Shown here: one piece after another, positions 13,926 to 58,326 of the stretch | Numbering within the stretch: the stretch's first letter is position 1 | Layout of the letters: each line of letters starts with the position of its first letter | DNA from: Rhodococcus sp. 1163 | Lineage (GTDB): Bacteria > Actinomycetota > Actinomycetes > Mycobacteriales > Mycobacteriaceae | NCBI RefSeq assembly: GCF_002091985.1 | Contig: NZ_MKKX01000017.1 | Location: 186,001-250,000 of the forward strand | Direction of reading: 5' to 3' | DNA: 64,000 nt | Program-made: the position numbers and the translations under genes | The notes under the pieces: generated by a model | The model's database searches: none | The model's input: the letters and a program-made list of their open reading frames with translations, nothing else | What the model was told of the DNA's origin: nothing

Positions 13926-14062
13926 GTCACCGAGCACGACCTGGAGAAACGTTCAGCCCTCTCGAGCTCTGCCGCGTGCAACCCATTGCAACTCTCGACC
14001 AATGCGCACCGAAGGTGTGTGCTGGCTCACAGAGCACGCACACGAGCAACAAGGGAGTTGGC

Positions 14063-40132: not shown

Positions 40133-40563
40133 GCTGTTCCTTCTCTTTCTAACACCGGATGCGGCGGACAGCGCATACAGTCCGCCGGGCCGGTTCCGAC
40201 CGTTGTACTTCCTGAATCCCCCTCGCGAGGAACCCCTGCAAAACAGAGATCCCTTCAGGAAACGCTCTGAAAAGCACACCGTTCGCAACATTAGTTTCTG
40301 TGAACGTGAAACGAACACAGAAGCTGCGACCAAGGCAAGTGAACCATGTTCCCAGCAATCGCAACAGTCGGAATGCGCACTTTCCGAACATTTTGTCGAT
40401 CTTGATGACCACAGAGCCGACCGACGACACCGTCGCGTGCCTTCACCAGCAGCGATACCGTCCCACTGCAGGTGATCGACCTGCTGACCGATAGCATGAA
40501 AACCGCAGGTCGTAGCCCTCGTAAATGTATGCTGTTCGTTCGATTTTCAAGTATGGAGAGCAC
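40133..40563. other. Divergent cspA-helicase intergenic region
   Basis: A 431-bp gap without a supportable gene, noticeably richer in A and T than its surroundings (for example 40265-40330). It must contain the cspA promoter and a probable long 5' leader on the minus strand, and the helicase promoter on the plus strand. No riboswitch family was recognised. Confidence 0.5.
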
Positions 40564-42921
40564 GTGACCCAACCGGTTCCACAGCAGAGCTACGGTCGCG
40601 CACTACTGGACCGAGTGCTCGCCGGCACCCCCTCCGGTGAGGACCCGTTGACCCACATCGCGGAGTTGCCGGGGCGGGCTTCGCAATTCGTCGACTGGCC
40701 GTCGTGGCTGAAGCCCGAAGTAAGCCGCACGCTGATTTCCCGAGGAATCACCCGACCGTGGAGCCATCAGGCTCACGCCGCGACACTCGCCATCGGCGGT
40801 CAGCACGTCGTCTTGTCCACCGGTACGGCATCGGGAAAGTCACTGGCATACCAGATGCCGATCTTGTCGACGCTTCTCGACGAGCCCCGCGCGACGGCAC
40901 TGTATCTGGCACCGACGAAGGCTCTGGGCGCAGACCAACTCCGCAGCACCATCTCCATCACCGACGAGTTACGCACCGAAGCACCGGAATCGAGTGAGGT
41001 CTTCCCGAGCTCGTACGACGGCGACACGCCCATCGAAACCCGACAGTGGGCCCGCGCCAATGCACGCTGGATTTTCACGAACCCGGACATGGTGCACATC
41101 GGAATTCTCGGCGCGCACGAGCGGTGGGCGAGATTCTTGCGGAACTTGAAATTCGTAGTCGTCGACGAATGCCATTACTATCGTGGCGTTTTCGGTTCCA
41201 ATGTCGCATTGGTACTTCGGCGCCTTCGACGCATCTGCGCGCGCTACGGTGCCACACCCACCTTCGTTCTGGCGAGTGCTACGACGGCCGATCCGGGAGC
41301 AGCGGCCACCCGCCTCGTCGGCGCTCACTGCGCACAGGTCACCGAGGACGGATCTCCGCACGGCCCTCGCACAGTGGCACTGTGGGAACCGCCGCTGCTG
41401 AAAGCGATCACGGGCGAGAACGGGGCGCCGGTTCGCCGGTCGGCAGGCGCTGAAGCGTCGCGCATCATGGCCGACCTCATGATAGAAGGCGCTCGCACAC
41501 TGACATTCGTCCGATCCAGGCGAGGAGCCGAGGTCACCGCTCTCGGCACTCGACGCCTGCTCGCCGACGTCGATCGAGACCTACCCGCTCGGGTTGCCGC
41601 GTATCGTGCTGGATATCTCGCGGACGATCGACGGAAATTGGAGTCGGATCTTTCCGACGGCACTTTGCTCGGGGTCGCCACCACCAACGCTCTCGAATTG
41701 GGCGTCGACATCGCCGGTCTCGACGCTGTCATCGTCGCAGGATTTCCCGGGACCGTCGCCTCGTTCTGGCAGCAGGCCGGCCGCTCGGGAAGGCGAGGAG
41801 AGGGATCTCTCGTCGTCCTCGTCGGCCGCGACGATCCACTCGACACGTACCTGGTTCACCATCCCGCAGCATTGCTGGACAAGCCCATCGAGGCGACGGT
41901 CACCGATCCGACCAACCCGTACATTCTCCGCCCGCAAATACTGTGCGCTGCAGCAGAATTACCGATCACCACCGAAGAGGCAGTGGAGCTGCAGGCCGAG
42001 TCGGTGCTCACTGCCCTGGCTGCCGACGGGCTGGTCCGCAAACGCCCGCACGGATGGTTCATCACACCCGAGGGCCAGAAGATGACTCCGCATGCCGCCG
42101 TGAACATACGCGGCGGCATCGGCGTTCAGGTCGCCATCGTCGACGGCGGCTCGGGTCGCATGCTCGGAACCGTCGATGGTGGCCGAGCCCCTGCCACAGC
42201 GCATCCCGGCGCCGTCCACATTCACCAGGGTGAATCGTTCGTCGTCGACGAGCTGGATCTCGAGGACGGAATCGCACTCGTCCACCCGGAGCAGCCCGAC
42301 TGGAGTACCTCTGCCCGCGAGAGAACCGACATCGCGGTCACGGCGGTGCACTCGCAGCAGGATTTCGGCGAGGTGACCACCGCACTCGTCCAGGTGAACG
42401 TCACCCATCAGGTCGTCGGCTATCTTCGACGTCTGCACTCCGGCGAGGTCCTCGATTCCATCGATCTCGACATGCCCGAACAGACATTGGATACACGCGC
42501 GGTGATGTACACGATCACACCGGAGCTACTCGAGGCCAGAGGGATACCGGCGGAACGATTCCCGGGATCACTCCATGCCGCGGAACACGCTGCCATCGGC
42601 CTACTTCCGCTCATCGCAACCTGCGATCGCTGGGACATCGGCGGCGTATCGACGGCCCTGCACCCGGACACCGGGCTACCCACGATCTTCGTATACGACG
42701 GTTACGACGGCGGTGCAGGATTCGCCGACCGGGGGCACAGCGCGCTCCGAGAATGGCTGGCCGCGACGAAGGATGCCATCGAATCATGCGAGTGTCGGAC
42801 CGGCTGTCCGTCGTGCATTCAGTCACCGAAATGCGGCAACGGTAACGATCCGCTGGACAAGCCTGGCGCCGTCGTGGTGTTGGAAACGGTCCTCGGTGCG
42901 CTCCGGGCCGGGCCGCGCTGA
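40564..42921 (+). CDS. DECH-box superfamily 2 helicase (Rv3649-like)
   Basis: A 785-aa ATP-dependent helicase of the actinobacterial helicase/secretion neighbourhood. Walker A is STGTASGKS near residue 95, the box II variant is VVDECHYYRGVFGSN, motif III is LASATT, and motif VI is QQAGRSGRRGEGS. The C-terminus has a DUF1998-like part with a Cys cluster CECRTGCPSCIQSPKCGNG, a likely metal site. GTG 40564 follows GGAG; the frame extends to 40525. Close relatives, including the YprA/Mrf group, act in DNA repair. The Tad genes that usually follow are displaced by about 19 kb here. Confidence 0.92.
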   Translation: MTQPVPQQSYGRALLDRVLAGTPSGEDPLTHIAELPGRASQFVDWPSWLKPEVSRTLISRGITRPWSHQAHAATLAIGGQHVVLSTGTASGKSLAYQMPILSTLLDEPRATALYLAPTKALGADQLRSTISITDELRTEAPESSEVFPSSYDGDTPIETRQWARANARWIFTNPDMVHIGILGAHERWARFLRNLKFVVVDECHYYRGVFGSNVALVLRRLRRICARYGATPTFVLASATTADPGAAATRLVGAHCAQVTEDGSPHGPRTVALWEPPLLKAITGENGAPVRRSAGAEASRIMADLMIEGARTLTFVRSRRGAEVTALGTRRLLADVDRDLPARVAAYRAGYLADDRRKLESDLSDGTLLGVATTNALELGVDIAGLDAVIVAGFPGTVASFWQQAGRSGRRGEGSLVVLVGRDDPLDTYLVHHPAALLDKPIEATVTDPTNPYILRPQILCAAAELPITTEEAVELQAESVLTALAADGLVRKRPHGWFITPEGQKMTPHAAVNIRGGIGVQVAIVDGGSGRMLGTVDGGRAPATAHPGAVHIHQGESFVVDELDLEDGIALVHPEQPDWSTSARERTDIAVTAVHSQQDFGEVTTALVQVNVTHQVVGYLRRLHSGEVLDSIDLDMPEQTLDTRAVMYTITPELLEARGIPAERFPGSLHAAEHAAIGLLPLIATCDRWDIGGVSTALHPDTGLPTIFVYDGYDGGAGFADRGHSALREWLAATKDAIESCECRTGCPSCIQSPKCGNGNDPLDKPGAVVVLETVLGALRAGPR

Positions 42922-43047
42922 GGTAGCTCCTACCGCGGGTCCGAAGACGACTGGGAAACCGCTGCAGCGTCAACGCGCGCCAGTTCAGTTGGCTGATGGA
43001 CTCGATACGTTCAGTCCTCGTTCATCTTGCAGACCCGATGAATATCT

Positions 43048-43057
43048 TGGCTATACA
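43048..43057. promoter_or_regulatory. Shared motif TGGCTATACA upstream of the ABC operon
   Basis: TGGCTATACA followed by NNTTG lies 73 bp before the binding-protein start. The same TGGCTATACANNTTG occurs at 49669 across the start of the divergent dioxygenase operon. It fits TG-N2-TA-N2-CA symmetry and is a candidate operator for the GntR/UTRA regulator encoded between the two operons. Confidence 0.45.
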
Positions 43058-43129
43058 ACTTGCTCGCGCAAAGTCTGTTTCGCGTGATTGCCACCTGGCA
43101 GCGAACGCGAATTCAGATTGGAGTCCATC

Positions 43130-44266
43130 GTGCGTAGTACAACGATTCGAACAGCGGGAATGATCTTTTTGGTAGGCACAGTGGCCCTCACCGGAACTGC
43201 CTGCACCAAGAAGAGTGATGCGCCCGCTACTGCTGCAGCGTCGGCGACATCGGCTGCCGATCTCGGCGGGATGGACGCCCTGATCGCCGCCGCACAGGAG
43301 GAGGGCTCTCTGAATCTCATTGGCCTGCCCCGTGATTGGGCCGGGTACGGCAACCTGATGGACAACTTCAGCGCCAAGTACGGCATCGCGGTCACGGTAG
43401 ACAACCCGGAGGCCAGCAGCGCCGACTTGGTCAACGCGATCAAGTCCCTCGCCGGCCAGGACCGCGCGCCAGATGCAGTGGACGTCGGTACTGCGTTCGC
43501 CATCAGCGGAGCTGAAGAGGGCCTGTACGCCCCGTACAAAGTAGAAACCTGGGACAGCATTCCCGAGTCGCAGAAAGCCGCCAAAGGTGACTGGTACGCG
43601 GACTACGGGGGCTACATCTCGATCGGCTGCGACGCGGCCAAGGTCGAGGTGTGTCCGGAGTCGTTCGCGGACCTCGCCAAGCCCGAATACAAGGGCAAGG
43701 TCGCACTGACCGGCGACCCCCTCAAGAGCAATTCAGCCCTGATGGCCGTCTGGTCGGCTGCCCTGGCCAACGGTGGCTCCGTCGATGACATTGCGCCCGG
43801 CATCGAATACTTCGGCAAACTCAAGGCCGCCGGAAACTACGTCCCGGTCAAGGCCACCGCCGCGACGATCGAATCCGGCGAGACCCCCATCGTCGTCGAC
43901 TGGGACTACCTGAACGCCGCGAAGACCGAGGATCTGGCGAGCTCCGGTGTGCAGTGGACCGTCGCAGTCTCGGGTGACGCGACCATCGGTTCGTACTACG
44001 CGCAGGCCGTCAGCGCGACAGCCCCGCACCCCGCCGCCGCGCGCCTGTGGCAGGAGTACCTCTACAGCGACGAGGGCCAGAACGGCTACCTCGCCGGATA
44101 CGCACGCCCGGCGCGTCTCCCGGCTATGGAAGAAGCCGGAACCGTCGACCCGGCACTCGCCGGCAACCTGCCCGCCGTCACTGTGAAAGCTGAATTCCCC
44201 ACGGACGCAATGTCCACCGCTGCGAAGAACACGATGACGCAGACCTGGGCCGGCGCGGTCGAGTAA
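43130..44266 (+). CDS. ABC transporter substrate-binding lipoprotein (2-aminoethylphosphonate/iron-type)
   Basis: A 378-aa extracellular binding protein. A signal peptide runs to a probable lipidated Cys in ALTGTAC. The mature part (IAAAQEEGSLNLIGLPRDW) and the end segment EYLYSDEGQNGYLAGYARP place it with the AfuA/PotD-like group, which includes phosphonate (PhnS) binders. GTG 43130 has GGAG six bases upstream. It is coupled by TAATG to the first permease. Context with a TmpA/TmpB-like oxygenase pair favours a 2-aminoethylphosphonate-type ligand, possibly its N-methylated form; polyamine or iron remains possible from sequence alone. Confidence 0.87.
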   Translation: MRSTTIRTAGMIFLVGTVALTGTACTKKSDAPATAAASATSAADLGGMDALIAAAQEEGSLNLIGLPRDWAGYGNLMDNFSAKYGIAVTVDNPEASSADLVNAIKSLAGQDRAPDAVDVGTAFAISGAEEGLYAPYKVETWDSIPESQKAAKGDWYADYGGYISIGCDAAKVEVCPESFADLAKPEYKGKVALTGDPLKSNSALMAVWSAALANGGSVDDIAPGIEYFGKLKAAGNYVPVKATAATIESGETPIVVDWDYLNAAKTEDLASSGVQWTVAVSGDATIGSYYAQAVSATAPHPAAARLWQEYLYSDEGQNGYLAGYARPARLPAMEEAGTVDPALAGNLPAVTVKAEFPTDAMSTAAKNTMTQTWAGAVE

Positions 44267-45174
44267 TGAGAACTACGAGCCCACCGTCGACCCGGCTCGA
44301 GACGAAGAGCAGTTCGACTCAACTGTGGAGTCGACTGGGACTGGTGCCGTTCTTCGGCTACGTCGCGGTCTTCTTCATCCTTCCCACCGCAGTGATTGCC
44401 TACTCTGCCTTCCAAGCCAAGGACGACGGCGGCGTCGGCACCTTTGGCGGCGCGAATATGACTGCGGCGCTTAGTGGTCCGTATCTGGACGCACTGTGGA
44501 ACAGTACGAAGATGTCGCTGATCAGCGCCGTAATCGCGGCAGCGCTCGGCCTCGTGCTCGCGTACGCGGTAGTCACCAGTCGCGGCGGCGTGCTGCAGCG
44601 GACGGTCTCCACCAGTGCTGCCGTCCTCGCCAACTTCGGCGGACTGCCCCTGGCTTTCCTCTTCGTCGCGGCGATCGGCAACGCCGGCGTGCTCACCTCC
44701 TTCGTTCGGGAGCACCTGGGGGTGTCGCTGCGCGAGGACCTGAGGCTGGACCTGTACTCACAGAGCGGCGTGCAGTTCGTATATCTGTACTTCCTGATCC
44801 CGCTGATGGTCCTGACCATCACACCGGCTCTCGAGGGCCTGCGCCCCGAGTGGCGCGAGGCGGCTGAGGGCCTCGGTGCGAAGGGCTGGCACTACTGGCG
44901 CTACGTCGCCGGCCCGGCCCTGCTGCCCCACTTCCTCGGCAGCCTCGCGCTGTTGTTCTGCACCGCATTCTCCTCGTTCGCAACGGCGGAGGCGCTCACG
45001 AACGGCACCTTGTCGATCACGCCGCTGCGCATCGACAGTGCCCTGTCCGGCAATGTTCTTGCCGGACAGGAGAATCTGGGCTCCGCCCTGGCACTGTCGA
45101 TGATCGTGGTCGTAGTTCCCCTGACCCTGCTCTACCAGCTGATGCAGCGAAGGAGTTCACGATGGTTGCAGTGA
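44266..45174 (+). CDS. ABC transporter permease, phosphonate/spermidine type
   Basis: A 302-aa inner-membrane subunit with about six helices. The first is VPFFGYVAVFFILPTAVIAY, typical of PotB/PhnU permeases. The ATPase-docking loop is EAAEGLGAKGWHYWRYVAGP. It starts at ATG 44266, sharing a base with the binding-protein stop (TAATG), and ends inside the next permease gene, so translation is tightly coupled. Confidence 0.92.
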   Translation: MRTTSPPSTRLETKSSSTQLWSRLGLVPFFGYVAVFFILPTAVIAYSAFQAKDDGGVGTFGGANMTAALSGPYLDALWNSTKMSLISAVIAAALGLVLAYAVVTSRGGVLQRTVSTSAAVLANFGGLPLAFLFVAAIGNAGVLTSFVREHLGVSLREDLRLDLYSQSGVQFVYLYFLIPLMVLTITPALEGLRPEWREAAEGLGAKGWHYWRYVAGPALLPHFLGSLALLFCTAFSSFATAEALTNGTLSITPLRIDSALSGNVLAGQENLGSALALSMIVVVVPLTLLYQLMQRRSSRWLQ

Positions 45175-46058
45175 TCGACGCACCCAAGTCCGACATCGCC
45201 GATAGTGCGGTCGCATCCGGAAAAAGCCGTCGCACAAGCAAAAACGCCCCACCCGTGCGCTATTGGCGCGGCATCGTCCTCGCCATCGCGGCCATCTACT
45301 TCCTCGGTCCGGCGCTGGTTGCCTTCTGGTTCACGGTGGATGGCGCCGACGGCCTCAACCTGGCGGCATACACCCGAATCTTTTCCGCACCCGGCTTCAC
45401 CGACTCGATGACGAGTTCCCTACTACTCGGCGTGATCGCGGTGACGATCACGCTGGGGATCATGGTGCCCACGATGCTGATCGTGCACCTCAGGCTGCCG
45501 AAGATGCGCAGCTACGTCGAGGCGTTCTCTCTGCTGCCGCTGGTGATCCCTCCGGTGGCCCTGGTGGTCGGTGTGCGCGGCGTACTCGGCTGGGGCAACG
45601 GCAGTGAGTACGTCGAAATCTCGTCGCTCTTCACTGCGCTACAAGACAAGTCGCTTCCACTGGTGCTCGCACTGATGTATGTCGTCGTCGCCCTGCCGTT
45701 CACCTTTCGCAGCCTCGACGCGGGACTTCGCGGCTCGAAGGTGACAGTCCTGGTGGAGGCCGCCCAGAACCTAGGGGCGCGGTGGCCGACCGTGCTTTGG
45801 CGAGTAGTACTCCCAGCTCTGCGCACGTCGATCCTCAACGGCGCCTTCCTCGCCTTCGCTCTGGTTATGGGCGAGTACACGATCGCGAAAATCCTGATCT
45901 TCCCGACCTTCCCGGTCTGGCTCGCACAGTCCGGTGCCACCGACGGCCAGTTGCAAGTCGCACTGTCCCTGCTCAGCTTGGTCTTCACGTGGGCGCTGCT
46001 GCTTATTGCGGTGGCGGTTGCCGGCAGAACATCAAAAGCACGTCTACGAAAGGAATGA
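45162..46058 (+). CDS. ABC transporter permease, phosphonate/spermidine type (second subunit)
   Basis: A 298-aa inner-membrane protein with about six helices. The docking loop is EAAQNLGARWPTVLWRVVLP. It overlaps the first permease by 13 bases and has AAGGAG before ATG 45162. It ends in a basic tail, ARLRKE, just ahead of the ATPase gene. With the other permease it should form the transmembrane channel of the importer. Confidence 0.92.
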   Translation: MVAVIDAPKSDIADSAVASGKSRRTSKNAPPVRYWRGIVLAIAAIYFLGPALVAFWFTVDGADGLNLAAYTRIFSAPGFTDSMTSSLLLGVIAVTITLGIMVPTMLIVHLRLPKMRSYVEAFSLLPLVIPPVALVVGVRGVLGWGNGSEYVEISSLFTALQDKSLPLVLALMYVVVALPFTFRSLDAGLRGSKVTVLVEAAQNLGARWPTVLWRVVLPALRTSILNGAFLAFALVMGEYTIAKILIFPTFPVWLAQSGATDGQLQVALSLLSLVFTWALLLIAVAVAGRTSKARLRKE

Positions 46059-46060
46059 TA

Positions 46061-47137
46061 ATGACGAACCCCCACGCTCTCCTCGCGACCGAGGGCACAG
46101 CCGTCAGCTTCGTCGGCGTGCGCCGCGCCTTCGGCAGCGTCAATGCGCTCGACGGACTCGATCTCAACCTCGAGCCGGGCGAACTGGTGGCGCTGCTCGG
46201 GCCGTCGGGCTGCGGCAAGACGACCGCGCTGCGCATCCTTGCCGGCTTCGACCGACCCGACGGCGGACAGGTCCTCGTCGACGGCGTCGACGCATCCGCT
46301 CTCCCGGTCAATCGCCGGGACATGGGCATGGTCTTCCAGTCCTACAGCCTCTTTCCCACCATGACCGCCCAGGACAATGTCGCATTCGGGCTCAGCCTGC
46401 GCGGGCGCAGCGAACGTGGCAAAGGCCGATTGGCCCGCGCCCGCGAGCTCCTCGACCTGGTAGGTCTCGCCGACCACATGCACAAGTATCCGCACCAGAT
46501 GTCGGGCGGGCAGCAGCAGCGAGTCGCGCTGGCGCGCGCCCTCGCGATCTCACCGCGTGTCCTCCTGCTCGACGAGCCGCTGTCCGCGCTCGACGCCAAG
46601 GTCCGCTACCAACTGCGCGAGGAGATCCGCCGCATCCAGCTGGACCTGCGCGTGACCACTCTCCTGGTCACCCACGACCAGGAGGAAGCTCTGGCAATCG
46701 CCGACCGCGTCGCGGTCATGCGTGCCGGCAAGCTCGAGCAGTGCGCGCCGCCCAACGAGGTCTACCAGCGCCCGTCGACGCCGTTCGTAGCCGAGTTCGT
46801 CGGCACGATGAATCACATCCCCGGCGTTGCCGTCGAACGAGGCACGGTGCAGGTGGGTGAACAAACCCTGACCTGTGACGGCGAATGGCCTGGCATAGGC
46901 CCCGTCACCGTGCTGACGCGTCCCGAGGCTGTATTGGTCGACGAGGCTCCCGGCGGCGACACGATCATCACGACAGCAACCTTCTACGGCGCGACGACGC
47001 GACTGCGGTTGACTCACTCGACCGGAAAGGTGCTACTCGCTGACGTCGCAAGCCATCGCGCGGCAATGTTGACGCCCGGATCACGGGTCCGAGTGTCGCT
47101 GCTCAACCGCCCGGTATTACTGGCGCCAGCCGAATGA
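46061..47137 (+). CDS. ABC transporter ATPase, phosphonate/spermidine type
   Basis: A 358-aa ATPase. Walker A GPSGCGKTT is near residue 50, the Q loop lies in MVFQSYSLFP, the signature is MSGGQQQRVALARAL, and Walker B is VLLLDEPLSALD. A C-terminal TOBE-like domain (MNHIPGVAVERGTVQVGE) is present, as in PotA/PhnT. ATG 46061 follows AAAGGA. An ATG at 46055 overlapping the permease stop is an alternative. It completes a four-gene importer. Confidence 0.94.
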   Translation: MTNPHALLATEGTAVSFVGVRRAFGSVNALDGLDLNLEPGELVALLGPSGCGKTTALRILAGFDRPDGGQVLVDGVDASALPVNRRDMGMVFQSYSLFPTMTAQDNVAFGLSLRGRSERGKGRLARARELLDLVGLADHMHKYPHQMSGGQQQRVALARALAISPRVLLLDEPLSALDAKVRYQLREEIRRIQLDLRVTTLLVTHDQEEALAIADRVAVMRAGKLEQCAPPNEVYQRPSTPFVAEFVGTMNHIPGVAVERGTVQVGEQTLTCDGEWPGIGPVTVLTRPEAVLVDEAPGGDTIITTATFYGATTRLRLTHSTGKVLLADVASHRAAMLTPGSRVRVSLLNRPVLLAPAE

Positions 47138-47147
47138 TCGGTACGGT

Positions 47148-47918
47148 GTGACGATGACCAAGGGCGACGACAGCCTGCCGCTCTACCGCTCGATTGCCAC
47201 GGATATCCAGACTGCAATCGAACGCGGGGACTTCGCCGACGGATCGACAATGCCCTCGGAGAACGAATTGACGGTGACGTACGGAGTTTCGCGTGGGACG
47301 ATCCGGCAGGCCTTCGCATTCTTGCGATCCACCGGTGTCGTGTCGTCGCGCCGCGGTGCGCGCAGACAAATCCGGAGCGGCCCGCGCGTACAGTCGATGA
47401 GCGAGCTGGTCAGCTTCTCCCTCTGGGCGCGCAGCCTCGGTGAGACACCGAGTAGCCGAACACTGAGCGTCGGAGCAGTGCCGGCGTCCGGCTTTGTTGC
47501 GGACAAGCTCGGAGTTCCCGAGGGCGCGAACGTTTTTCACACCCATCGCCTTCGGCTGCTGAGTGACGTGCCGACTATGCTCGAGAGCACCTACTACCCG
47601 GAGTCCCTCGCGCCGTTGATCGCAGCGATCGACCTCGACACCCAGTCGATCACCGATCGCCTGGGTGATCACGGCATCGTGTTCGCCGATGCGGAACATG
47701 CAATCGCCGCGGTTGCAGCAACTTCCGGAGAGGCCGAATTGCTCGGCCTTGCGCCCGGAGCGCCGCTGCTGCGCACGATCAGGCGGACGACGAACCCGCT
47801 CGGCGAGGTCCTCGAGTGCTCGATCGACCTGTACGCCGCTGAATCCGTTGCGTTCGTGGTCCGTAATTCACTGGCCGCCGGAGGGACCAGTCGGGTCGGT
47901 TCGCGGCGCGACACCTAG
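47148..47918 (+). CDS. GntR family regulator with UTRA ligand domain
   Basis: A 256-aa regulator of the HutC subfamily. The N-terminal winged helix has PLYRSIATDIQTAIERGDF and SENELTVTYGVSRGTIRQA. The UTRA domain follows, ending EVLECSIDLYAAESVAFVV. The PhnF/PhnR regulators of phosphonate genes belong to this group. It starts 10 bp after the ATPase stop; GTG 47148 and ATG 47154 are both possible. It is co-directional with the importer and convergent with the oxygenase pair, and probably controls both through the TGGCTATACA motif. Confidence 0.9.
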   Translation: MTMTKGDDSLPLYRSIATDIQTAIERGDFADGSTMPSENELTVTYGVSRGTIRQAFAFLRSTGVVSSRRGARRQIRSGPRVQSMSELVSFSLWARSLGETPSSRTLSVGAVPASGFVADKLGVPEGANVFHTHRLRLLSDVPTMLESTYYPESLAPLIAAIDLDTQSITDRLGDHGIVFADAEHAIAAVAATSGEAELLGLAPGAPLLRTIRRTTNPLGEVLECSIDLYAAESVAFVVRNSLAAGGTSRVGSRRDT

Positions 47919-47937
47919 CCCGGTAATCGACTGACAC

Positions 47938-47978
47938 AAGGATCCGTTGCCCGAGTTCGATTCGGGTAACGGATCCTT
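47938..47978. terminator. Bidirectional terminator between GntR and HD genes
   Basis: AAGGATCCGTTGCCCGA and TTCGGGTAACGGATCCTT form a near-perfect stem around a short loop. It lies centrally in the 82-bp gap between convergent genes. Confidence 0.85.
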
Positions 47979-48000
47979 CGTGCTGTGGAGACTGCTGTCA

Positions 48001-48558
48001 CTACTCCTGAAGGGTGCAGTCCAGCGCGTCGATGTCGGCCCGGAAGTCGGCTAGCGTGACTACGGGTGCGTCCGGATCCTTGCCGAGGTCGTCGAACTTG
48101 CGCAGTTGGCAAGCAGCCTCCGCGAAGGGTTCGGCTGCGAACGCCGCCACCTCCTCGTCAGTCATCGATCCGCCTTGTACGGACATGGTGAATTTCGAAG
48201 CGTCGGAGAGCTTGTCGTAGTAGGCCGGATCAGTGGCACACAGGTAGCGTTTGGCGGCGACGTGGAGACGAACCGGTTCGGTCACCTCAGGAGCGAACCA
48301 TGTCGACAGCCACTCGGAGGCGACGGCGTCGTGATGGTTATCGTTGCCCGACATGAGGTCTCGTCCACTGATCGCACCGGAGAAATGGCCGACGTCGTGC
48401 AGTACCGCCGCCACTACAAGTACCGTGGGAGCGCCGGCTTCGCGAGCAGCTCGTCCGGTCTGGAGCATGTGCTGCGCCATCGATACTTGCTCACCGAGGT
48501 ACTCCTGCCCACCTTCACCGTCGAACAGCTTGGTCAGGGTGTCGTACGCGTGCGTCAT
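48001..48558 (-). CDS. PhnZ/TmpB-like HD-domain mixed-valent di-iron oxygenase
   Basis: A 185-aa HD-domain protein of the type found with phosphonate genes. Visible ligands are His30, His54-Asp55 (LHDVGHF), His76, His99 and Asp157, with Tyr20 and Glu23 in EYLGE. That spacing matches the PhnZ metal ligands and its Tyr/Glu lid with a near-constant offset. PhnZ and TmpB use O2 to cleave the C-P bond of a 1-hydroxyalkylphosphonate, giving a carboxylate (glycine or glycine betaine) and phosphate. ATG 48558 shares its A with the stop of the dioxygenase gene (TGATG), so the two enzymes are made together. Confidence 0.85.
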   Translation of the reverse strand: MTHAYDTLTKLFDGEGGQEYLGEQVSMAQHMLQTGRAAREAGAPTVLVVAAVLHDVGHFSGAISGRDLMSGNDNHHDAVASEWLSTWFAPEVTEPVRLHVAAKRYLCATDPAYYDKLSDASKFTMSVQGGSMTDEEVAAFAAEPFAEAACQLRKFDDLGKDPDAPVVTLADFRADIDALDCTLQE

Positions 48559-49679
48559 CAGTTCTCCTCGAAGGCTTGCAGGGTGCTGAGCAACCCGTCC
48601 AGGTCTGCGTAGGTTCCCTGGAGATGGCGTCCGCCGGTCGCGGCAAATGCGGTACGGGCGTGCAAAAGTCGTGTGTTGTCGAAGATCAGGCAATCTCCGG
48701 CGTCGAGCTGGAAGTTGAGCTGAGCCTCGGGGTGGTACAGCAGTTCGGCGAAGGTACGGTAGGCGCTGTAGAACTCGCCGGCCAGGCTCGATTCCAGACG
48801 CGGCGCAACCATCGCGCGGTTGTTGAAGCGGATCTCGCGCACCCTGCCGGACTGGTCGAGACCGATCATCGGCATGGTCGCACTCAGGTGCGCGTCGGTG
48901 CTGTCGAAGCGGAAGGTCACCGGCGTGCGGGTCAGAACGTCGAACGCACGAGGATTGTTCTCACGCAACATCTTCGCAGCGGCAAACCCGTCGACGAGGC
49001 CGGATTCACCGCCGGTGGTCTCGTTGTGAATGCAATGCAGCAACTGGAGAGTGGGCACCGGATCCCGGTACGGATTGTCGGTGTGCGGACTGATCGCGAG
49101 TCCGGTGAACGCGAGGTTGACGGGATTTTCCTCGACGCGGACGTCGAAGATTGTCCCGTAGTTGGTCTCACGGACGAAGCCGAAGGTCTCAGCGACAGCC
49201 ACAACCTGACCCAAATCGGTTGGTACACCGTGTACCAGAGCAAAACCATCGTCGACCAAGGCACGCAATGCGGGTGCTGGATCAGCGAGGTAGTCAGTCC
49301 AGTCATTCCACACCGGAGATACTTCTGCGGCCAAGCGCCACAAGCGCTTTGCCTCCTCGTTTCGCGCGTCAGCCAAACCGGGAGGCACGTCGGCCGTGAT
49401 CAGGGCCTCGACATCGAACACCCCCCGGTGACCGTCCGGAGCGAACTCGACCTCGAGACTGCGGCCCACGACCCGAGCACGCTCCACCCGAGTATCCGCA
49501 GGCAGGTCGACGATGTTGAACAACTTCTGTCCGTTATCGGCGCGACTTTCCGGACACGGGCAACTGTCCCGCAGCCAGATCGCCGCGATCTCGACCTGGG
49601 TGTCCCCCACCTTCAGATACAGGTCTCCGTCCTCGACCAATGCGGATATGCCTAGTCTTTCACCAACGTGGCTATACAT
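48558..49679 (-). CDS. TmpA/gamma-butyrobetaine-hydroxylase-like Fe(II)/2-oxoglutarate dioxygenase
   Basis: A 373-aa protein. The N-terminal DUF971-like domain (about residues 20-95) precedes a TauD-type catalytic domain. Iron ligands are HTD at residues 199-201 (SPHTDNPY) and a His near 340 (RLLHART). TmpA, of this architecture, hydroxylates the carbon next to phosphorus in 2-(trimethylammonio)ethylphosphonate; PhnY, which acts on 2-aminoethylphosphonate, belongs to a different subfamily. The N-terminal zinc motif reads CPCPES, so the usual third Cys is Ser. ATG 49679 lacks a clear ribosome site and overlaps the candidate operator. It is the first gene of the oxygenase pair. Confidence 0.82.
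   Translation of the reverse strand: MYSHVGERLGISALVEDGDLYLKVGDTQVEIAAIWLRDSCPCPESRADNGQKLFNIVDLPADTRVERARVVGRSLEVEFAPDGHRGVFDVEALITADVPPGLADARNEEAKRLWRLAAEVSPVWNDWTDYLADPAPALRALVDDGFALVHGVPTDLGQVVAVAETFGFVRETNYGTIFDVRVEENPVNLAFTGLAISPHTDNPYRDPVPTLQLLHCIHNETTGGESGLVDGFAAAKMLRENNPRAFDVLTRTPVTFRFDSTDAHLSATMPMIGLDQSGRVREIRFNNRAMVAPRLESSLAGEFYSAYRTFAELLYHPEAQLNFQLDAGDCLIFDNTRLLHARTAFAATGGRHLQGTYADLDGLLSTLQAFEEN
49669..49678. promoter_or_regulatory. Shared motif TGGCTATACA at the dioxygenase start
   Basis: The second copy of TGGCTATACANNTTG, overlapping the ATG of the TmpA-like gene. A repressor bound here would block initiation directly. See the copy at 43048 ahead of the ABC operon. Confidence 0.45.
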
Positions 49680-50126
49680 GTTGAATATCGTGCACGGCTT
49701 TCGTCACCAATCGACAAAGCTGCGGTGAACGCCGAGCGTCCGGCACGCGCCTATTCAAAGTGCCGATCGACTACTTGGGAGTTCATGCGGGGGGAGGCGG
49801 TCAGAATCAACAGCGCCGCCGGAACTACTTCGATCACGACGGGCAGGGGCCATCCGATCTCGATCGGCGTGCGCCCAACCAGGCGGACGCATCAGCAGTA
49901 AGAAGAATCGAGGCCAAAGGCATCCTCCTCCAGCCTCTACAGCGGCGCCGCCGGGTCGGTGTCCGCGATCCAGGGAGTGGTGCTAGCGACTTTCGAAAGC
50001 CTTCGTCCCAGTGACAGAGACTGTGGTCTTATTACCGTGATTCAAGTCATATGGTGGTTCGCCTATGGCGAGCGCGACATGTTCCACCGAGACCGTTCGT
50101 CTCGACACAATCCAGGAGGTTCTTAG
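49680..50126. other. Intergenic region between dioxygenase and orphan binding-protein genes
   Basis: 447 bp separating divergent genes. It contains the dioxygenase promoter side on the left, and on the right the AGGAGG ribosome site of the binding-protein gene. Short open frames here have no ribosome sites, and I recognise no family in them. Confidence 0.5.
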
Positions 50127-51728
50127 GTGACACTTTCAAGGCAACGCAGGCGCGGCGCGGTGGCTTTTGCCGTCTTGACCAGCGGCCTACTGTTGGCGGG
50201 CTGTGCGAGCGGTGGTGGTAGCAGTTCCAGCCCACAGACCGACCCAGGCGCTGTCGGTGTGATCGGGGATCAGGCTGAGGGCGGCACCCCCGTGGAGGGT
50301 GGCACGTTGAGCTTCGCCGGCTATTCACCGGTGGCGAGCCTCGACCCTGCCAAGACCCAGCCCACTGGCTCAACCGGTGGCACCGAGATGGCAGCGGTCT
50401 ACGATCTCCTCGTACGCTACGACTCCGCCTCCGATTCCTACGAGCCGCAACTGGCGAAAGCGCTCACCTCGAGCGACGACTTCAAGACGTGGACCCTGGA
50501 GTTGCGCGACGGCGTCACCTTCAGTGACGGCACGCCACTCGATGCCAAGGCCGTAATCGCCAGCACCAATCGCTTCAACGAACGGAAGGGCGGCGGCAGT
50601 CAGGCATTCACCGCCGGCGTGAAGTCCATGGAGGCCACCAACGACTCCACCGTGGTCTACACCATGAATCAGTCGTGGTCCGAGTTCCCGTCGCTTCTCG
50701 TCTACGGCCACGGCATGGTCGTCGCACCTAGCTCGGATCAGCCCGACGGCACTTTCAAGCCGATCGGCGCAGGTGCTTTCACATTGGAGAGCCTGACCCC
50801 CGGCGCAGACGTTGTGATGAAGGCCCGGCCGGACTACTTCAACGGCAAGCCGAACCTGGACACACTGAAGTTCGTCACGATCAGCGACGAACAGCCCAAG
50901 GTCGACGCCCTCAACTCGGGCGGCCTCAATATGGCATACCTACGCGACGCCGCAGTCGTCGACGAGGCATCAGCCAACCTTCCGGGTTACTACGAGACGA
51001 GCAGTCTCTCTGCGGTGGTCAGTATCAACCAGCGTGAAGGCCGTCCCGCCGCCGACGTGCGGGTACGGAAGGCGATGCAACTGGCCGTCGACCCCGTGGC
51101 AATCGATCAGCGTGCACGTGGCGGCAAGGGCATGCCCGGCACCGAGATTTTCCAGCCTTGGTCCAAGTGGCACAACGATATTGCGCCCGTGGAGATGAAT
51201 ACGGAAGAGGCCAAGGCTCTAGTCGAGGCCGCGAAGGCAGACGGCTTCAGCGGCAACATGACCTACTTCACCCCCCAGACGCAGGCGGCCCAGGCCACCG
51301 CACTGACAATCCAGGCGATGCTGGCACCGATCGGTATCAACGTCGACATCGAGTACGCGGCATCGGTCACGGACATCGTCAAACGCCTGTACATCGACAA
51401 GGACTTCGACATCGCCACCGGCGCGCTGAGCATCCAGGACACGGCACCGTTCCAGCGCCTGTACGGGGCGTTGAACTCCACATCGACGAACAACATCGGC
51501 GGGGTCAACGACCCGAAGATGGACGAGATCGTCGCCAGTGTCCAAACCGCAACCAATGACGAGGCGAAGCTCGAGGCTTTGAGCAACCTACAGGTGGAGG
51601 TCAACGAGAACGTGCCGTTCCTGGCCCTTGCCTCCGGTGCCAACTTCTTGGCGTGGACCGACAACGTGCACGGCGCAGTGCCGAGCCTGGACGCGATGGT
51701 GCTTCTGGACAAGGCCTGGATCGAGTAG
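50127..51728 (+). CDS. Orphan ABC substrate-binding lipoprotein, family 5
   Basis: A 533-aa binding lipoprotein. The signal ends in lipobox LLAGC, then a Gly/Ser linker. The SBP_bac_5 body contains ELRDGVTFSDGTPLDAKAV. It aligns well by eye with the binding protein at 52319-53941 over most of its length. GTG 50127 has AGGAGG at ideal spacing. No permease or ATPase lies beside it on its strand, so it may share the importer encoded at 54039-58326. The ligand is unknown. Confidence 0.92.
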   Translation: MTLSRQRRRGAVAFAVLTSGLLLAGCASGGGSSSSPQTDPGAVGVIGDQAEGGTPVEGGTLSFAGYSPVASLDPAKTQPTGSTGGTEMAAVYDLLVRYDSASDSYEPQLAKALTSSDDFKTWTLELRDGVTFSDGTPLDAKAVIASTNRFNERKGGGSQAFTAGVKSMEATNDSTVVYTMNQSWSEFPSLLVYGHGMVVAPSSDQPDGTFKPIGAGAFTLESLTPGADVVMKARPDYFNGKPNLDTLKFVTISDEQPKVDALNSGGLNMAYLRDAAVVDEASANLPGYYETSSLSAVVSINQREGRPAADVRVRKAMQLAVDPVAIDQRARGGKGMPGTEIFQPWSKWHNDIAPVEMNTEEAKALVEAAKADGFSGNMTYFTPQTQAAQATALTIQAMLAPIGINVDIEYAASVTDIVKRLYIDKDFDIATGALSIQDTAPFQRLYGALNSTSTNNIGGVNDPKMDEIVASVQTATNDEAKLEALSNLQVEVNENVPFLALASGANFLAWTDNVHGAVPSLDAMVLLDKAWIE

Positions 51729-52318: not shown

Positions 52319-53941
52319 TCAGGACTCGACCCATGCTTTGTCGAACAACATGATGCCAGTGGCAGTGGGCACGACTTCGTGCACGTCCTTCTGCCACGCC
52401 CAAAACGCGGCAAGCCCGCTGATGGGAACCGACGGCACAGTGTCGTTCCAGAGGCTCTGGACTCGAGCGATCACATCGCGCGCAGCATCATCGTCGGGGG
52501 CCGCCTGGAGCTCCTTCAACAAGCCGTCCATCTCCGGATTGGCATACCCGGCTGTGTTCCTCAACGATGTGCTGGAGAGAACGGACTGCAAACCCGCGTC
52601 TGGAATCGACTCGTAAAGACCGATCCCGGCATGAGCCAGATCGAATTCATGTTTGACATAGACGCTGTTCAGTAGATCCCCAGCGTTGTTGGCGTAGACG
52701 ATGTCCACTGTAAAACCGACGGCTTGCAGCAACGACTGCACCGCAAGGCCGATCGCTTGATCCTTGGGCTCGTTGAGAACGGTGTACTTCAGACGCCCGT
52801 CATAACCGTCGGCCTTTGCCTGGTTCAGCAACTCGGTGGCCTTGGCCGGATCGTAGACAGGGCCGGCAACATCGGTATGCCATTGCGACGTCTGTCCGAA
52901 CAACTCGGATCCGGGAAGGCCCTGGCCTTCTTCAGCGCGCTGATCGATGAGGTCGGGGTCAATGGCATACGAGATCGCTTGTCGTACCCGGACGTCTGTG
53001 CCTGGACGACCTTCGCGATTGTTGATCAGCTCGGCTCCGCCGGCATTGAGGACATCGACGAATCCGGGGTAGCCGGCATCTTTCGCAGCGTTGATTGCCG
53101 ATCCCAGGCCGCGAATGTAGGCAACGTCGAGTTGGCCCGCTTCCAGTGACTCGAAGTTCTCTTGTGGGCCGTTCAACGCCACCATGCGCAGACTGGCCAA
53201 ATTCGGTGGCCCGCCGTAGTAGTCGGGGTTCGCGGTGAACGTGCGTTCCTCTCCGGGGAGAAAACCTGCCTCTGTGAAGGGACCGGCCCCAACCGGAGTG
53301 AACTTCTCACCTTGCTGTGCACCTGGGGCGACGATCATGCCGTGGCCCAACGCCAGCATCGACGGAAACCTGGGCCATGAATTTGCGAGACGGAAGATCA
53401 CAGTGGAACTGTCTTGCGCCTCGGTCGATTTCACCGACTGCTTCCATAGATCTGCACCATTGCCACCGCCGGCGTTGTAGCGCTCGATGCTCGCGACGAC
53501 CGCTGCAGCATCCAACGGCGTGCCGTCACTGAAGCGCACTCCCTCACGTAGACGCAGAGTCCATGTCGTGTCGTCTGTGCTTTGCAATGATTCGGCGAGC
53601 TGGGGTGAGAACTCCCCGGACTCGATGTCGTACTTCATGAGCACGTCGTACACAGCGGCGAGTGCCTCGCCACCCTGGCCACCGCGGGCTGTGGCTCGGA
53701 GAGGGTCCAGCGTCGGAGTGAGAAGTTGTACACCGTAGGTGAGGGTGCCACCGGCGACCGGATCGCCACCTTCGGATTGGACGTTCACCAGGCCGGTCTC
53801 GTACGTGTCGCTGCCGGACTGGGAACCCTCCCCGTTGGCACCGCTCGAGCACGCTGCGAGTACGACGCCGACTCCGACCAGCGCGGCTGCCATACGGCCG
53901 GAGCGGCCGGTCATCCGGTGTCCATAAAACATGGGAATCAT
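52319..53941 (-). CDS. ABC substrate-binding lipoprotein, family 5 (operon-linked)
   Basis: A 540-aa binding lipoprotein. A short basic start (MIPMFYGHRMTGRSGR) leads into a hydrophobic segment and lipobox VLAACSS. The body carries LREGVRFSDGTPLDAAAVVA and, like its paralogue at 50127, an EGGxPVxGGTL opening. ATG 53941 follows AAGGAA. It is the last gene of a minus-strand operon after two permeases and two ATPases, an unusual position because the binding protein is usually first. Confidence 0.93.
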   Translation of the reverse strand: MIPMFYGHRMTGRSGRMAAALVGVGVVLAACSSGANGEGSQSGSDTYETGLVNVQSEGGDPVAGGTLTYGVQLLTPTLDPLRATARGGQGGEALAAVYDVLMKYDIESGEFSPQLAESLQSTDDTTWTLRLREGVRFSDGTPLDAAAVVASIERYNAGGGNGADLWKQSVKSTEAQDSSTVIFRLANSWPRFPSMLALGHGMIVAPGAQQGEKFTPVGAGPFTEAGFLPGEERTFTANPDYYGGPPNLASLRMVALNGPQENFESLEAGQLDVAYIRGLGSAINAAKDAGYPGFVDVLNAGGAELINNREGRPGTDVRVRQAISYAIDPDLIDQRAEEGQGLPGSELFGQTSQWHTDVAGPVYDPAKATELLNQAKADGYDGRLKYTVLNEPKDQAIGLAVQSLLQAVGFTVDIVYANNAGDLLNSVYVKHEFDLAHAGIGLYESIPDAGLQSVLSSTSLRNTAGYANPEMDGLLKELQAAPDDDAARDVIARVQSLWNDTVPSVPISGLAAFWAWQKDVHEVVPTATGIMLFDKAWVES

Positions 53942-54038
53942 GTGGGTTCCTTGTATGTGCGTGCGGTTCGACGGATGAGAACGCCAGACAACGACCCTCT
54001 GGGACAGTTCGCCGCGAGGGGGCGGGTAAAAGCTGGGA

Positions 54039-55025
54039 TTACACGTTGTGGCAGGCCACGAAGTGGTCCTTGCCGACCTCCCGTAACAGTGGCTCTTCGG
54101 CTGCGCACTGCTCGGTCGCGAGTGGGCAACGGGTCCGAAAACGGCAACCCGACGGTGGGTTCAGGGGGGAGGGCAGGTCGCCCTCGATGATCTCGATCTC
54201 GTCCTCCCCATCCCGCGATCGGTTCGGATCCGGAATCGAGTCGAGCAGCAGTCGGGTGTAGGGATGCATCCCGGTGTTCTGAACATTGTCGGTCGGCGCG
54301 ACCTCGCAGACCTTACCGAGGTACATCACCATGATCCGGTCGCTGATGTTCTTCACCACGGCCATGTTGTGGGCGATGAAGATCATCGAGAACTCGAATT
54401 CCTTCTTGGTTTTCTCCAGAAGGTTCAATATCTGTGCCTGCACCGACACGTCGAGGCTCGAGACCGGCTCGTCACAGATCAGCAGCTTCGGCCGAAGCAT
54501 CAAAGCGCGTGCGATACACACACGCTGGCATTGGCCGCCCGACAGTTCGCCCGCCGTCTTCTCCATCACCGCATCCGGATCCAGGCCCACTGCGCTGAGC
54601 AGCTCACGGGTCATGGTTTCGAGCTTGGCCTTGTTTTTGGTCCCCCAGATGCGAGGTCCCTCGGTGACAAGATGCTTGACCTTGCGGCGCGGGTTCAGCG
54701 ATGAGATCGGGTCCTGCATGATCATCTGCATCTGGTTGCGGGTGATCCGCAGACTCGACGCGGACATGTCACCGAGGACCATGTCATCGAGCGTCACGGT
54801 GCCGGACGTGGGCTTGGGCAACTGTAGGACAGCGCGCCCGGCGGTGGACTTCCCGCAGCCCGACTCCCCGACGATGCCCAGTGTCTCCCCTGGGACGAGG
54901 TCGAAGCTGATGCCGGAGACCGCGTGCACGGTCTGTTTGCCTGCGGGGAATTCGACCAACAGGTTCTCGACGGTCAAGACCCGCTTCTCGTCTTCGCGCA
55001 TGTGTGCGGTACCGCTGCCAGCCAT
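54039..55025 (-). CDS. Oligopeptide ABC transporter ATPase (OppF/DppF-like)
   Basis: A 328-aa ATPase. Walker A GESGCGKST is near residue 57, the signature is LSGGQCQRVCIARALM, and Walker B is LLICDEPVSSLDVS. The oligopeptide-family C-terminus is HPYTRLLLDSIPDPNRS followed by the Cys-bearing CRFRTRCPLATEQC. ATG 55025 shares its A with the preceding TAA (TAATG). It pairs with the ATPase encoded upstream. Confidence 0.95.
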   Translation of the reverse strand: MAGSGTAHMREDEKRVLTVENLLVEFPAGKQTVHAVSGISFDLVPGETLGIVGESGCGKSTAGRAVLQLPKPTSGTVTLDDMVLGDMSASSLRITRNQMQMIMQDPISSLNPRRKVKHLVTEGPRIWGTKNKAKLETMTRELLSAVGLDPDAVMEKTAGELSGGQCQRVCIARALMLRPKLLICDEPVSSLDVSVQAQILNLLEKTKKEFEFSMIFIAHNMAVVKNISDRIMVMYLGKVCEVAPTDNVQNTGMHPYTRLLLDSIPDPNRSRDGEDEIEIIEGDLPSPLNPPSGCRFRTRCPLATEQCAAEEPLLREVGKDHFVACHNV

Positions 55026-56167: not shown

Positions 56168-56234
56168 CGGTGAACTCCCGCTTTGCCATGTAGGGCCAGG
56201 ACTGAGGCGATACGGACACTGTCCGCTCTCGCCG

Positions 56235-57377: not shown

Positions 57378-58326
57378 GGGCTCGTCGGCTCCTCGGGTCG
57401 AGATATCCATAGGAGATATCGATGATGCCGTTGGCCACCACGTAGATGAACGCGATCACCAGTACCGCTCCCTGCACCATCGGCATATCGCCCTGCTGGG
57501 CGGCGCGCACGATCAGCGAACCCATCCCCGGCAGCGAGAACAGCGTCTCGATGATGACGGTGGAGCCGATCATCGAGCCCAGCACCAGGCCGAGCATCGT
57601 GATCAGGGAGAACGAGGAGGGACGGAACGCATCGGAGATCAGCAACCTCAGGTTCGAGGTGCCCTTCGCCTTGGATACCAGGATGAAGTTCTCTTGCAGG
57701 GTCGTGATCAGGTCGCTGCGCAAGATGCGCAGGAACATCGCCATTTCCAGGAGGCTGATCGTGACCGCCGGCAGGATCGCGTGGTACAGGTTGTCGGCAA
57801 GTCCCCCCTCGGATACACGCACCCACTGGGAGCGCGGGAACCAGCCGAGGGTGTTGACGAACAGCATGATCAACAGCAGGCCGGACAGGAACGATGGGAT
57901 CGACAAGACGCCGAATGTGGTGGCACTGATGACACGGTCGACCAGGCCGCCGCTGTGGCGCGCGGACCACATTGCCAACGGAATCGATACCACCAGTGCG
58001 ATAACCATCCCCATGACAGCCAACTGCACACTCACCGGCAGCGCTGCGACGATGCGCTCCATCACGTCCGACTGCGGCGGAACCAGCGAACGGCCCAGAT
58101 CGCCCTGCAGAGCGGACGTGAGCCAATCCCAGTAGCGGCTCAAGAACGGATCGTCCAAGCCCATATCGAGACGCGCCTGGGCGTACTCCTCAGGGGTACG
58201 TCCCTCCCCTAGTGCCGCCACCGACGGGTCACCGGGTATCAGCGACACAAGTCCGAACGTGCCGAGGCTGACGACGAACAGCACAGCAATCAGCTCGCCA
58301 ATTTTTTTGAACACAACCTTGGTCAT
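57370..58326 (-). CDS. Oligopeptide ABC transporter permease (OppB/DppB-like)
   Basis: A 318-aa permease that opens the operon. Helix 1 is followed by LVSLIPGDPSVAALGEG, with GDLGRSLVPPQ later, both DppB hallmarks. The docking loop is VSKAKGTSNLRLLISDAFRP. About six membrane helices are visible. It is preceded by 750 bp without a gene, which probably holds the operon promoter. Confidence 0.94.
   Translation of the reverse strand: MTKVVFKKIGELIAVLFVVSLGTFGLVSLIPGDPSVAALGEGRTPEEYAQARLDMGLDDPFLSRYWDWLTSALQGDLGRSLVPPQSDVMERIVAALPVSVQLAVMGMVIALVVSIPLAMWSARHSGGLVDRVISATTFGVLSIPSFLSGLLLIMLFVNTLGWFPRSQWVRVSEGGLADNLYHAILPAVTISLLEMAMFLRILRSDLITTLQENFILVSKAKGTSNLRLLISDAFRPSSFSLITMLGLVLGSMIGSTVIIETLFSLPGMGSLIVRAAQQGDMPMVQGAVLVIAFIYVVANGIIDISYGYLDPRSRRAHV

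What the first reader, a model, noticed from the sequence alone, without database searches (positions are those of the whole stretch)
43048..49679. Probable phosphonate-use island with TmpA/TmpB-like oxygenases in an actinomycete
The ABC importer, GntR/UTRA regulator and convergent two-oxygenase operon form one unit. The HD protein keeps every metal ligand and the Tyr/Glu lid of PhnZ-type enzymes. Its partner has the DUF971-TauD layout of TmpA rather than the PhnY family, pointing to a quaternary-ammonium phosphonate and glycine betaine as product. No phosphonatase or transaminase is present, so this would be a self-contained oxidative route.
Basis: partly seen in the sequence, partly recalled or inferred. 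Interest (0 to 1): 0.75.

Follow-up and report, generated by a model that had tools for sequence, protein, structure and literature searches.

The report
Phosphonate-scavenging gene module in Rhodococcus
An actinomycete carries a self-contained set of seven genes that probably imports a choline-like phosphonate and breaks its tough carbon-phosphorus bond with two iron enzymes to release phosphate and glycine betaine; the chemistry is known from other bacteria, but this lineage adds its own importer, its own genetic switch and, in relatives, versions with the two enzymes fused into one protein.

Summary
Window 43130-49679 encodes a PhnS-type importer (four genes), a GntR/UTRA regulator, and a convergent, coupled dioxygenase-HD pair. 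The dioxygenase passes NCBIfam's TmpA cut-off (404.6 vs 400), keeps TmpA's phosphonate residues N187/N287/R288 and an aromatic cage, and groups with TmpA, not butyrobetaine hydroxylase (100/99). The HD protein keeps all metal ligands and the YxxE lid and groups with TmpB, not PhnZ (97/92), but misses the TmpB cut-off (180 vs 300). No PhnJ, PhnX, PhnW or PhnA over cut-off in the genome. New evidence: (1) two sister genomes lack just window 42955-49881; (2) an 18-bp palindrome at both promoters recurs in 49 of 51 related loci with the regulator, 1 of 14 without; (3) the enzymes are one polypeptide in 40 of 65 relatives, 37 in one order, 3 reversed, the latter with an HD domain from outside the TmpB clade. 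Best reading: TmpA/TmpB-type route, N-trimethyl-2-aminoethylphosphonate to glycine betaine plus phosphate. Substrate inferred; no assay. Known chemistry; actinomycete form, switch and fusions not seen in the open-library listings searched.

The parts
42955..49881 (.). Whole module: the stretch present here and in L025 but replaced by 19 and 12 bp in sister genomes G001 and G031
   Evidence: blastn of window 38001-60000 to L149 and L151 (edges uncertain by a few bases), junctions read
43009..43026 (+). PHO-box-like direct repeat (GTTCA n6 GTTCA) upstream of the importer operon; suggestive only
   Evidence: Streptomyces PHO-box motif GTTCACC from PMC4415409 (passages)
43044..43061 (-). Operator 1, AAGTTGTATAGCCAAGAT, 17 of 18 to the consensus, importer promoter
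   Evidence: only exact 13-bp core in the whole genome
43130..44266 (+). Substrate-binding lipoprotein of PhnS/AEP-binding type (SBP_bac_6)
   Evidence: model closest to 5t1p, then Salmonella STM0429 (4r6y)
44266..45174 (+). ABC permease 1
45162..46058 (+). ABC permease 2
46061..47137 (+). ABC ATPase, best model PhnT2 (394 bits, cut-off 458)
47148..47918 (+). GntR/UTRA (HutC/PhnF-type) regulator, presumed repressor
   Evidence: its presence predicts the operator
47938..47978 (.). Perfect 19-bp stem with 3-nt loop between the convergent operons, probable shared terminator
   Evidence: sequence printed; folded (-31.5 kcal/mol; no shuffle control)
48001..48558 (-). HD-domain di-iron oxygenase, TmpB-like; only Phn-HD match in the genome
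48558..49679 (-). Fe(II)/2-oxoglutarate dioxygenase, TmpA
49665..49682 (-). Operator 2, AACATGTATAGCCACGTT, overlapping the ATG of the dioxygenase gene (encodes MYSHV; MYSQV-type start in relatives)

Best explanation
The module is an oxidative phosphonate-scavenging unit. The PhnS-type ABC importer takes up a quaternary-ammonium phosphonate, most likely N-trimethyl-2-aminoethylphosphonate. The dioxygenase hydroxylates the carbon next to phosphorus (2-oxoglutarate, O2, Fe(II)) to the (R)-1-hydroxy compound. The HD oxygenase (Fe(II)/Fe(III), O2) then cleaves the C-P bond, giving phosphate and glycine betaine. The GntR/UTRA protein represses both operons through an 18-bp palindrome at the importer promoter and over the start codon of the dioxygenase gene, and is presumably released by the substrate or a product. 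Shown here: gene content, family placement, catalytic and binding residues, linkage of the two enzymes, unit boundaries, operator-regulator association. Inferred: substrate, products, stereochemistry, repression and inducer, transport specificity.
For: TmpA model 404.6 bits, over its cut-off of 400; butyrobetaine model 331, below its 415. Best PDB match TmpA E 2.8e-81 vs BBOX 2.5e-41; HD best match TmpB 1.1e-37 vs PhnZ 7.8e-23. N188/N287/R288 in the window; conserved in 57, 59 and 62 of 64 aligned relatives; R288 is A in BBOX and W in the two relatives L084/L085 that have no HD partner. Trees. One polypeptide in 40 of 65 relatives (7 of the 40 scanned). Operator: 80 of 82 sites (at least 14/18) in 1.18 Mb lie within 400 nt of the dioxygenase/fusion, SBP or GntR start; present in 49 of 51 loci with the regulator, 1 of 14 without. 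Empty sites. PhnJ, PhnX, PhnW and PhnA not over cut-off, nor PEP mutase, so use rather than synthesis.
Confidence: 0.8

Rival explanations
1. Same chemistry, other substrate: the pair acts mainly on AEP, mono- or dimethyl-AEP, or another amino-phosphonate, giving glycine or its N-methyl forms.
For: HD protein below the TmpB cut-off; importer resembles AEP-binding PhnS/STM0429; the TmpB row lies among actinomycete rows without a close tie to the window.
Against: Aromatic cage positions Y174, F178, F191, Y357 shared with TmpA and BBOX, which bind trimethylammonium groups (PMC9296572 passages); TmpA grouping.
Confidence: 0.15
2. The dioxygenase is a gamma-butyrobetaine or trimethyllysine hydroxylase and the HD protein a phosphohydrolase; the module serves carnitine metabolism.
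For: Same domain layout and a substantial TIGR02409 match of 331 bits.
Against: R288 present, A in BBOX; TmpA tree side 100/99; HD lid and ligands of oxygenases; fusion with an HD oxygenase in relatives; PhnS-like importer.
Confidence: 0.02
3. The pair takes part in making or modifying a phosphonate natural product, as DfmD does in dehydrofosmidomycin synthesis.
For: N-trimethyl-AEP is an intermediate there in a Streptomyces (PMC9296572, passages); DfmD is a weaker PDB match.
Against: No PEP mutase over cut-off in the genome, importer and regulator in the unit, TmpA not DfmD the closest match.
Confidence: 0.03

Closest known systems
TmpA/TmpB of Leisingera caerulea (PDB 6npa-6npd; described in PMC10574752, PMC8177086, PMC9296572, passages)
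   Same: Two-gene unit, both enzyme families, Fe ligands, phosphonate residues, YxxE lid
   Different: 43% and 42% identity; own ABC importer and GntR/UTRA gene here, whereas the two annotated alphaproteobacterial pairs fetched have a LysR-type gene nearby; fused forms in relatives
PhnY*/PhnZ and the methylphosphonate pair of Gimesia maris (PMC10574752, passages)
   Same: Oxygenase then HD oxygenase logic; HD ligands
   Different: Partner is TauD/GBBH-type, not phytanoyl-CoA-dioxygenase-type as in actinomycete plasmid loci L104/L105; HD tree places the window apart from PhnZ
PhoF, the fungal PhnY-PhnZ fusion (PMC10574752, passages)
   Same: Both steps in one polypeptide, as in 40 of 65 relatives (not in the window)
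   Different: Dioxygenase domain is TmpA type; two domain orders occur
PhnSTUV / AepSTU AEP importers (PMC8316502, passages)
   Same: SBP_bac_6 binding protein, two permeases, PhnT2-like ATPase
   Different: All four below the curated cut-offs; ligand untested

Membership tests
TmpA (2-trimethylaminoethylphosphonate dioxygenase) | NCBIfam NF049936 curated cut-off, 400 bits | tested here: met
   404.6 bits, 405 in the whole-genome search
TmpA (2-trimethylaminoethylphosphonate dioxygenase) | Phosphonate-binding N187, N287, R288 and Fe ligands H, D, H | tested here: met
   N188, N287, R288, H199, D201, H340 in the window
TmpA (2-trimethylaminoethylphosphonate dioxygenase) | Groups with TmpA apart from BBOX in a tree | tested here: met
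   100/99 branch, 37 of 43 rows on the TmpA side; no AU test run
TmpA (2-trimethylaminoethylphosphonate dioxygenase) | Hydroxylates N-trimethyl-AEP | not testable with these tools
   needs enzyme assay
TmpB ((R)-1-hydroxy-2-trimethylaminoethylphosphonate oxygenase) | NCBIfam NF049941 curated cut-off, 300 bits | tested here: not met
   180.2 bits; the four forward fusions scanned reach 196-206. Filed as TmpB-like, not as TmpB
TmpB ((R)-1-hydroxy-2-trimethylaminoethylphosphonate oxygenase) | HD-oxygenase metal motif H..HD..H..H..D and YxxE lid | tested here: met
   H30, H54-D55, H76, H99, D156, Y20, E23
TmpB ((R)-1-hydroxy-2-trimethylaminoethylphosphonate oxygenase) | Groups with TmpB apart from PhnZ and C-P-lyase-linked HD proteins | tested here: met
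   97/92 branch, 32 of 42 rows; no AU test run
gamma-butyrobetaine dioxygenase | NCBIfam TIGR02409 cut-off, 414.75 bits | tested here: not met
   331.4 bits
PhnS-type 2-aminoethylphosphonate binding protein | NCBIfam NF011620 / TIGR03227 cut-offs (310 / 395 bits) | tested here: not met

The most novel reading that the evidence does not exclude
Actinomycetota hold their own branch of the N-trimethyl-AEP oxidative pathway, with a dedicated importer and repressor, in which the two oxygenases became one polypeptide at least twice and in opposite domain orders, once by recruiting an HD oxygenase from outside the TmpB clade. Repeated fusion suggests that keeping the hydroxy-phosphonate intermediate between the two active sites is under selection, and that quaternary-ammonium phosphonates are a real soil phosphorus source.
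Probability: 0.5. Interest if true: 0.65.

Novelty: new member of a known kind. Interest (0 to 1): 0.5.

Why it matters
A 2021 review of phosphate and phosphonate use in Streptomyces and relatives treats phosphonate degradation there through C-P lyase genes and calls these very rare in Streptomyces (PMC7866108; abstract and passages shown; the search in that call found the words dioxygenase, trimethyl and phosphonatase nowhere in its text). An oxidative route with its own importer and switch would give actinomycetes a second way to mine phosphonates. The natural fusions offer a ready system to test intermediate channelling between a 2-oxoglutarate dioxygenase and a mixed-valent di-iron oxygenase, and the importer and operator offer parts for sensing a quaternary-ammonium phosphonate.

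Tried and rejected
Butyrobetaine-hydroxylase reading: rejected on R288, cut-offs and tree. Phosphonate-biosynthesis reading: no PEP mutase over cut-off. Betaine as carbon source through sarcosine oxidase SoxB: not over cut-off; other betaine routes were not searched. Mobile-element reading: no direct repeat of 8-10 bp between the two 100-bp edge regions, GC 63.6% against 63.1% for the window, one tRNA in the window, 11 kb away, and no recombinase among the module's seven proteins; the flanking genes were not scanned for recombinases. In G029 the site carries other DNA. Rfam on 42000-51000: nothing at gathering threshold.

PHO boxes: matches of at least 10/14 to GTTCACCNNNNGTTCACC upstream of SBP in 7 of 7 and of the dioxygenase in 7 of 7 Nocardiaceae loci (shuffles 18% and 15%), other actinomycetes 17 of 27 and 30 of 59 (shuffles 18% and 13%), reference loci from plasmids 1 of 7. 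The best match differs in place and strand among the loci, in L068 both counts come from one shared stretch, and the window's own dioxygenase-side match is not significant (P 0.13), so this is only suggestive.

Operator count on the genome: the 13-bp core with up to 2 mismatches is not over-represented (14 matches; backwards control 58), but the only exact match is the importer promoter. In one search, 27 of 73 dioxygenase-side and 29 of 34 SBP-side regions had at least 14/18 (shuffles never above 13); some dioxygenase starts were misplaced there, so rescanned whole loci. The consensus came from the 7 Nocardiaceae loci and that had its second arm completed from other relatives, so the counts are not fully independent of it; related loci are not independent of each other either.

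AlphaFold: the SBP model is good (pLDDT 84). The fusion model is poor in its dioxygenase half (mean pLDDT 64, pTM 0.44), so its PDB matches (TmpA first, then BBOX, TmpB, DfmD and PhnZ) carry little structural weight. The window's own dioxygenase and HD protein were not modelled.

Limits: the search for related loci uses short patterns from the query, so its 65 loci are biased to near relatives; loci cut by contig ends can miss neighbours; no AU tests were run; the trees used 43 and 42 of the available rows, and L088 was left out of the alignments; fusions were judged by open reading frames without transcripts. PalA and other C-P routes were not searched. Of 9 neighbour proteins scanned in L030, L034, L041 and L066, none pointed to phosphonate or betaine metabolism. 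One paper search was left unused.
Full report
What is there. Seven genes lie between a DEAD/DEAH-type helicase (40525-42921; name judged from its sequence, not scanned) and a family-5 solute-binding protein (50127-51728). On the + strand: SBP (SBP_bac_6), two permeases, an ATPase whose best model is PhnT2, and a GntR/UTRA regulator 10 nt behind the ATPase. Converging on the - strand: a GBBH-like_N + TauD dioxygenase and an HD protein whose stop and start codons overlap (TGATG), which suggests translational coupling. A 19-bp perfect stem with a 3-nt loop at 47938-47978 sits between the convergent ends.

Is it one unit? Two sister genomes, whose helicase is 98% identical, lack the module: in G001 and G031 the sequence runs from the helicase to the next gene, with 19 and 12 bp in place of window 42955-49881. 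L025 carries the whole stretch at the same place. A third sister, G029, has other DNA there. Of 37 genomes of the genus, 2 have a dioxygenase over the TmpA cut-off. So these seven genes are present or absent together in the four genomes compared. No direct repeats or nearby tRNA mark the edges; the flanks were not scanned for recombinases.

Dioxygenase. It is over the NCBIfam TmpA cut-off (404.6/400) and under those for butyrobetaine (331/415) and trimethyllysine (192/268) hydroxylases. TmpA is its best solved relative; 43% identity to TmpA, 30% to human BBOX. In TmpA, N187, N287 and R288 hold the phosphonate, while BBOX has the two asparagines only (PMC9296572, passages). The window has N188, N287 and R288; relatives keep them in 57, 59 and 62 of 64. 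The exceptions: H for N187 in L069, L078-L080 and L082, of which the last four (Frankia group) also have D for N287; S for N287 in L074; S for N187 and W for R288 in L084 and L085. The cage columns (BBOX Y177, W181, Y194, Y366, numbers recalled) are Y174, F178, F191, Y357. L084 and L085 have no HD partner in the locus and fall outside the TmpA clade: an internal control.

HD protein. It matches TmpB best among solved structures, keeps H..HD..H..H..D and YxxE (meaning of these motifs from PMC8177086, passages), and lies in a 97/92 clade with TmpB that excludes PhnZ, the HD proteins of C-P lyase operons (L103, L109) and the phytanoyl-CoA-dioxygenase-linked HD proteins of Rhodococcus and Dietzia plasmids (L104, L105). 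It misses the curated TmpB cut-off by far (180/300), so I call it TmpB-like. Within the clade the TmpB branch lies among actinomycete rows, so no special tie of the window to TmpB is resolved. It is the only Phn-HD match in the genome.

Relatives and fusions. A scan of GTDB species genomes gave 65 related loci, 64 of them from Actinomycetota. In 37 of 65 the dioxygenase and HD regions lie in one frame without a stop, dioxygenase first; in 3 of 65 (Acidimicrobiaceae L047, L055, L063) the HD domain comes first; 22 are separate (including L088, which has a stop in the span, and L089, where the HD gene is 4.9 kb away); 3 have no HD match in the locus (L074, L084, L085). I scanned 7 of the 40 fused proteins: all 7 exceed the TmpA cut-off (416-435 bits); with the Phn-HD model (cut-off 214.6) the four forward ones reach 214.5-217 (3 of 4 over) and the three reverse ones 178-180. 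The reverse fusions carry an HD domain that lies outside the TmpB clade and scores better with the hydroxymethylphosphonate model (148-159) than with TmpB (119-126), though their dioxygenase halves lie inside the TmpA clade. Over 36 tree rows the three states need at least 4 changes. Fusion in two orders with different partners is strong evidence that the two activities act together. In the window they are separate, overlapping genes.

Switch. An 18-bp palindrome, AAGTTGTATAGCCAACTT in a common form, lies 87 nt upstream of the SBP start and across the ATG of the dioxygenase gene (43044-43061 and 49665-49682). In the window and six Nocardiaceae relatives the first codons of the dioxygenase (MYSHV, MYSQV, MYGQV) are spelled by the operator, which suggests a leaderless mRNA blocked at its first codon (inference). 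Scanning all 65 loci (1.18 Mb), 80 of 82 sites with at least 14/18 matches lie within 400 nt of the start of the dioxygenase/fusion, SBP or GntR gene; 49 of 51 loci with a homologue of the regulator have such a site, against 1 of 14 without. That ties the regulator to the operator. PHO-box-like repeats near both promoters are suggestive only.

Neighbours elsewhere. Of the 65 loci, 33 hold an SBP and 51 a GntR homologue within the fetched DNA; the Planotetraspora, Herbidospora and many Streptomyces loci with the fusion lack a recognisable importer of this type nearby.

Distribution. In an even draw of 394 genomes of the class (the window's own included), 17 have a TmpA-type match at E 1e-60 or better and 5 exceed the cut-off: patchy, as for an accessory trait.

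What is known. The chemistry, the enzymes of Leisingera and their structures are published; I saw these through reviews and related papers (PMC10574752, PMC8177086, PMC9296572, passages); the original paper (10.1021/acs.biochem.9b00044) is not held. The fungal fusion PhoF is reported for PhnY/PhnZ. The listings of searches of the open library (titles and abstract starts; two searches listed 20 of 30 and 15 of 24 papers) showed none describing TmpA/TmpB in actinomycetes or a TmpA-TmpB fusion; the marine AEP paper notes homologues of the trimethyl-AEP clade in metagenomes (PMC8316502, passages). Subscription papers could not be searched, so the claim of novelty is limited to those listings. NCBIfam's own TmpA model already names the dioxygenase.

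Verdict. I put the explanation as a whole, N-trimethyl-AEP as main substrate included, at 0.8. The window is a new member of a known kind; the fused, differently ordered relatives are the more novel part.

Noticed in passing
L104:4117-5513 and L105:4144-5534: Rhodococcus NJ-530 and Dietzia plasmids share another likely oxidative phosphonate cassette: phytanoyl-CoA dioxygenase-type gene + HD oxygenase beside a cobalamin-independent methionine synthase II family gene, a 2-oxoglutarate oxygenase and a GPR1/FUN34/YaaH transporter.
   Followed up: partly
L063:11057-11575 with 11700-15491: Acidimicrobiaceae locus has, besides the reverse HD-dioxygenase fusion, a second separate HD oxygenase next to a PhnS-type importer.
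   Followed up: partly
L108:2932-5738: Pseudomonas aeruginosa plasmid: TauD dioxygenase + divergent HD protein followed by choline-binding SBP and choline dehydrogenase. The dioxygenase keeps R at the R288 column but has D and P at the two Asn columns; the HD row has L and Y in place of the lid Y and E.
   Followed up: partly
L084 and L085, about 9001-10095: Acidimicrobiia relatives of the dioxygenase without HD partner in the locus and with W in place of R288: probably another substrate.
   Followed up: no
L078, L079, L080, L082 (Frankia group): Dioxygenase-HD pairs with H for N187 and D for N287: the phosphonate site is remodelled although R288 is kept.
   Followed up: no
L107:635-3549: Novosphingobium plasmid HD oxygenase-like gene divergent from a phosphocholine-specific phospholipase C.
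   Followed up: no
L150 after position 2524: Sister genome G029 carries unrelated DNA behind the helicase where the module or the empty site stands in others: a variable site.
   Followed up: no
window 50127-51728 and 52319-58326: Two related family-5 solute-binding proteins (opposite strands) border the module, the second followed by further long - strand reading frames, perhaps a peptide/nickel-type ABC operon (not scanned); present in sister genomes without the module.
   Followed up: no
L070:16907 and L075:17132: Two operator-like palindromes far from the known genes, possibly extra members of the regulon.
   Followed up: no
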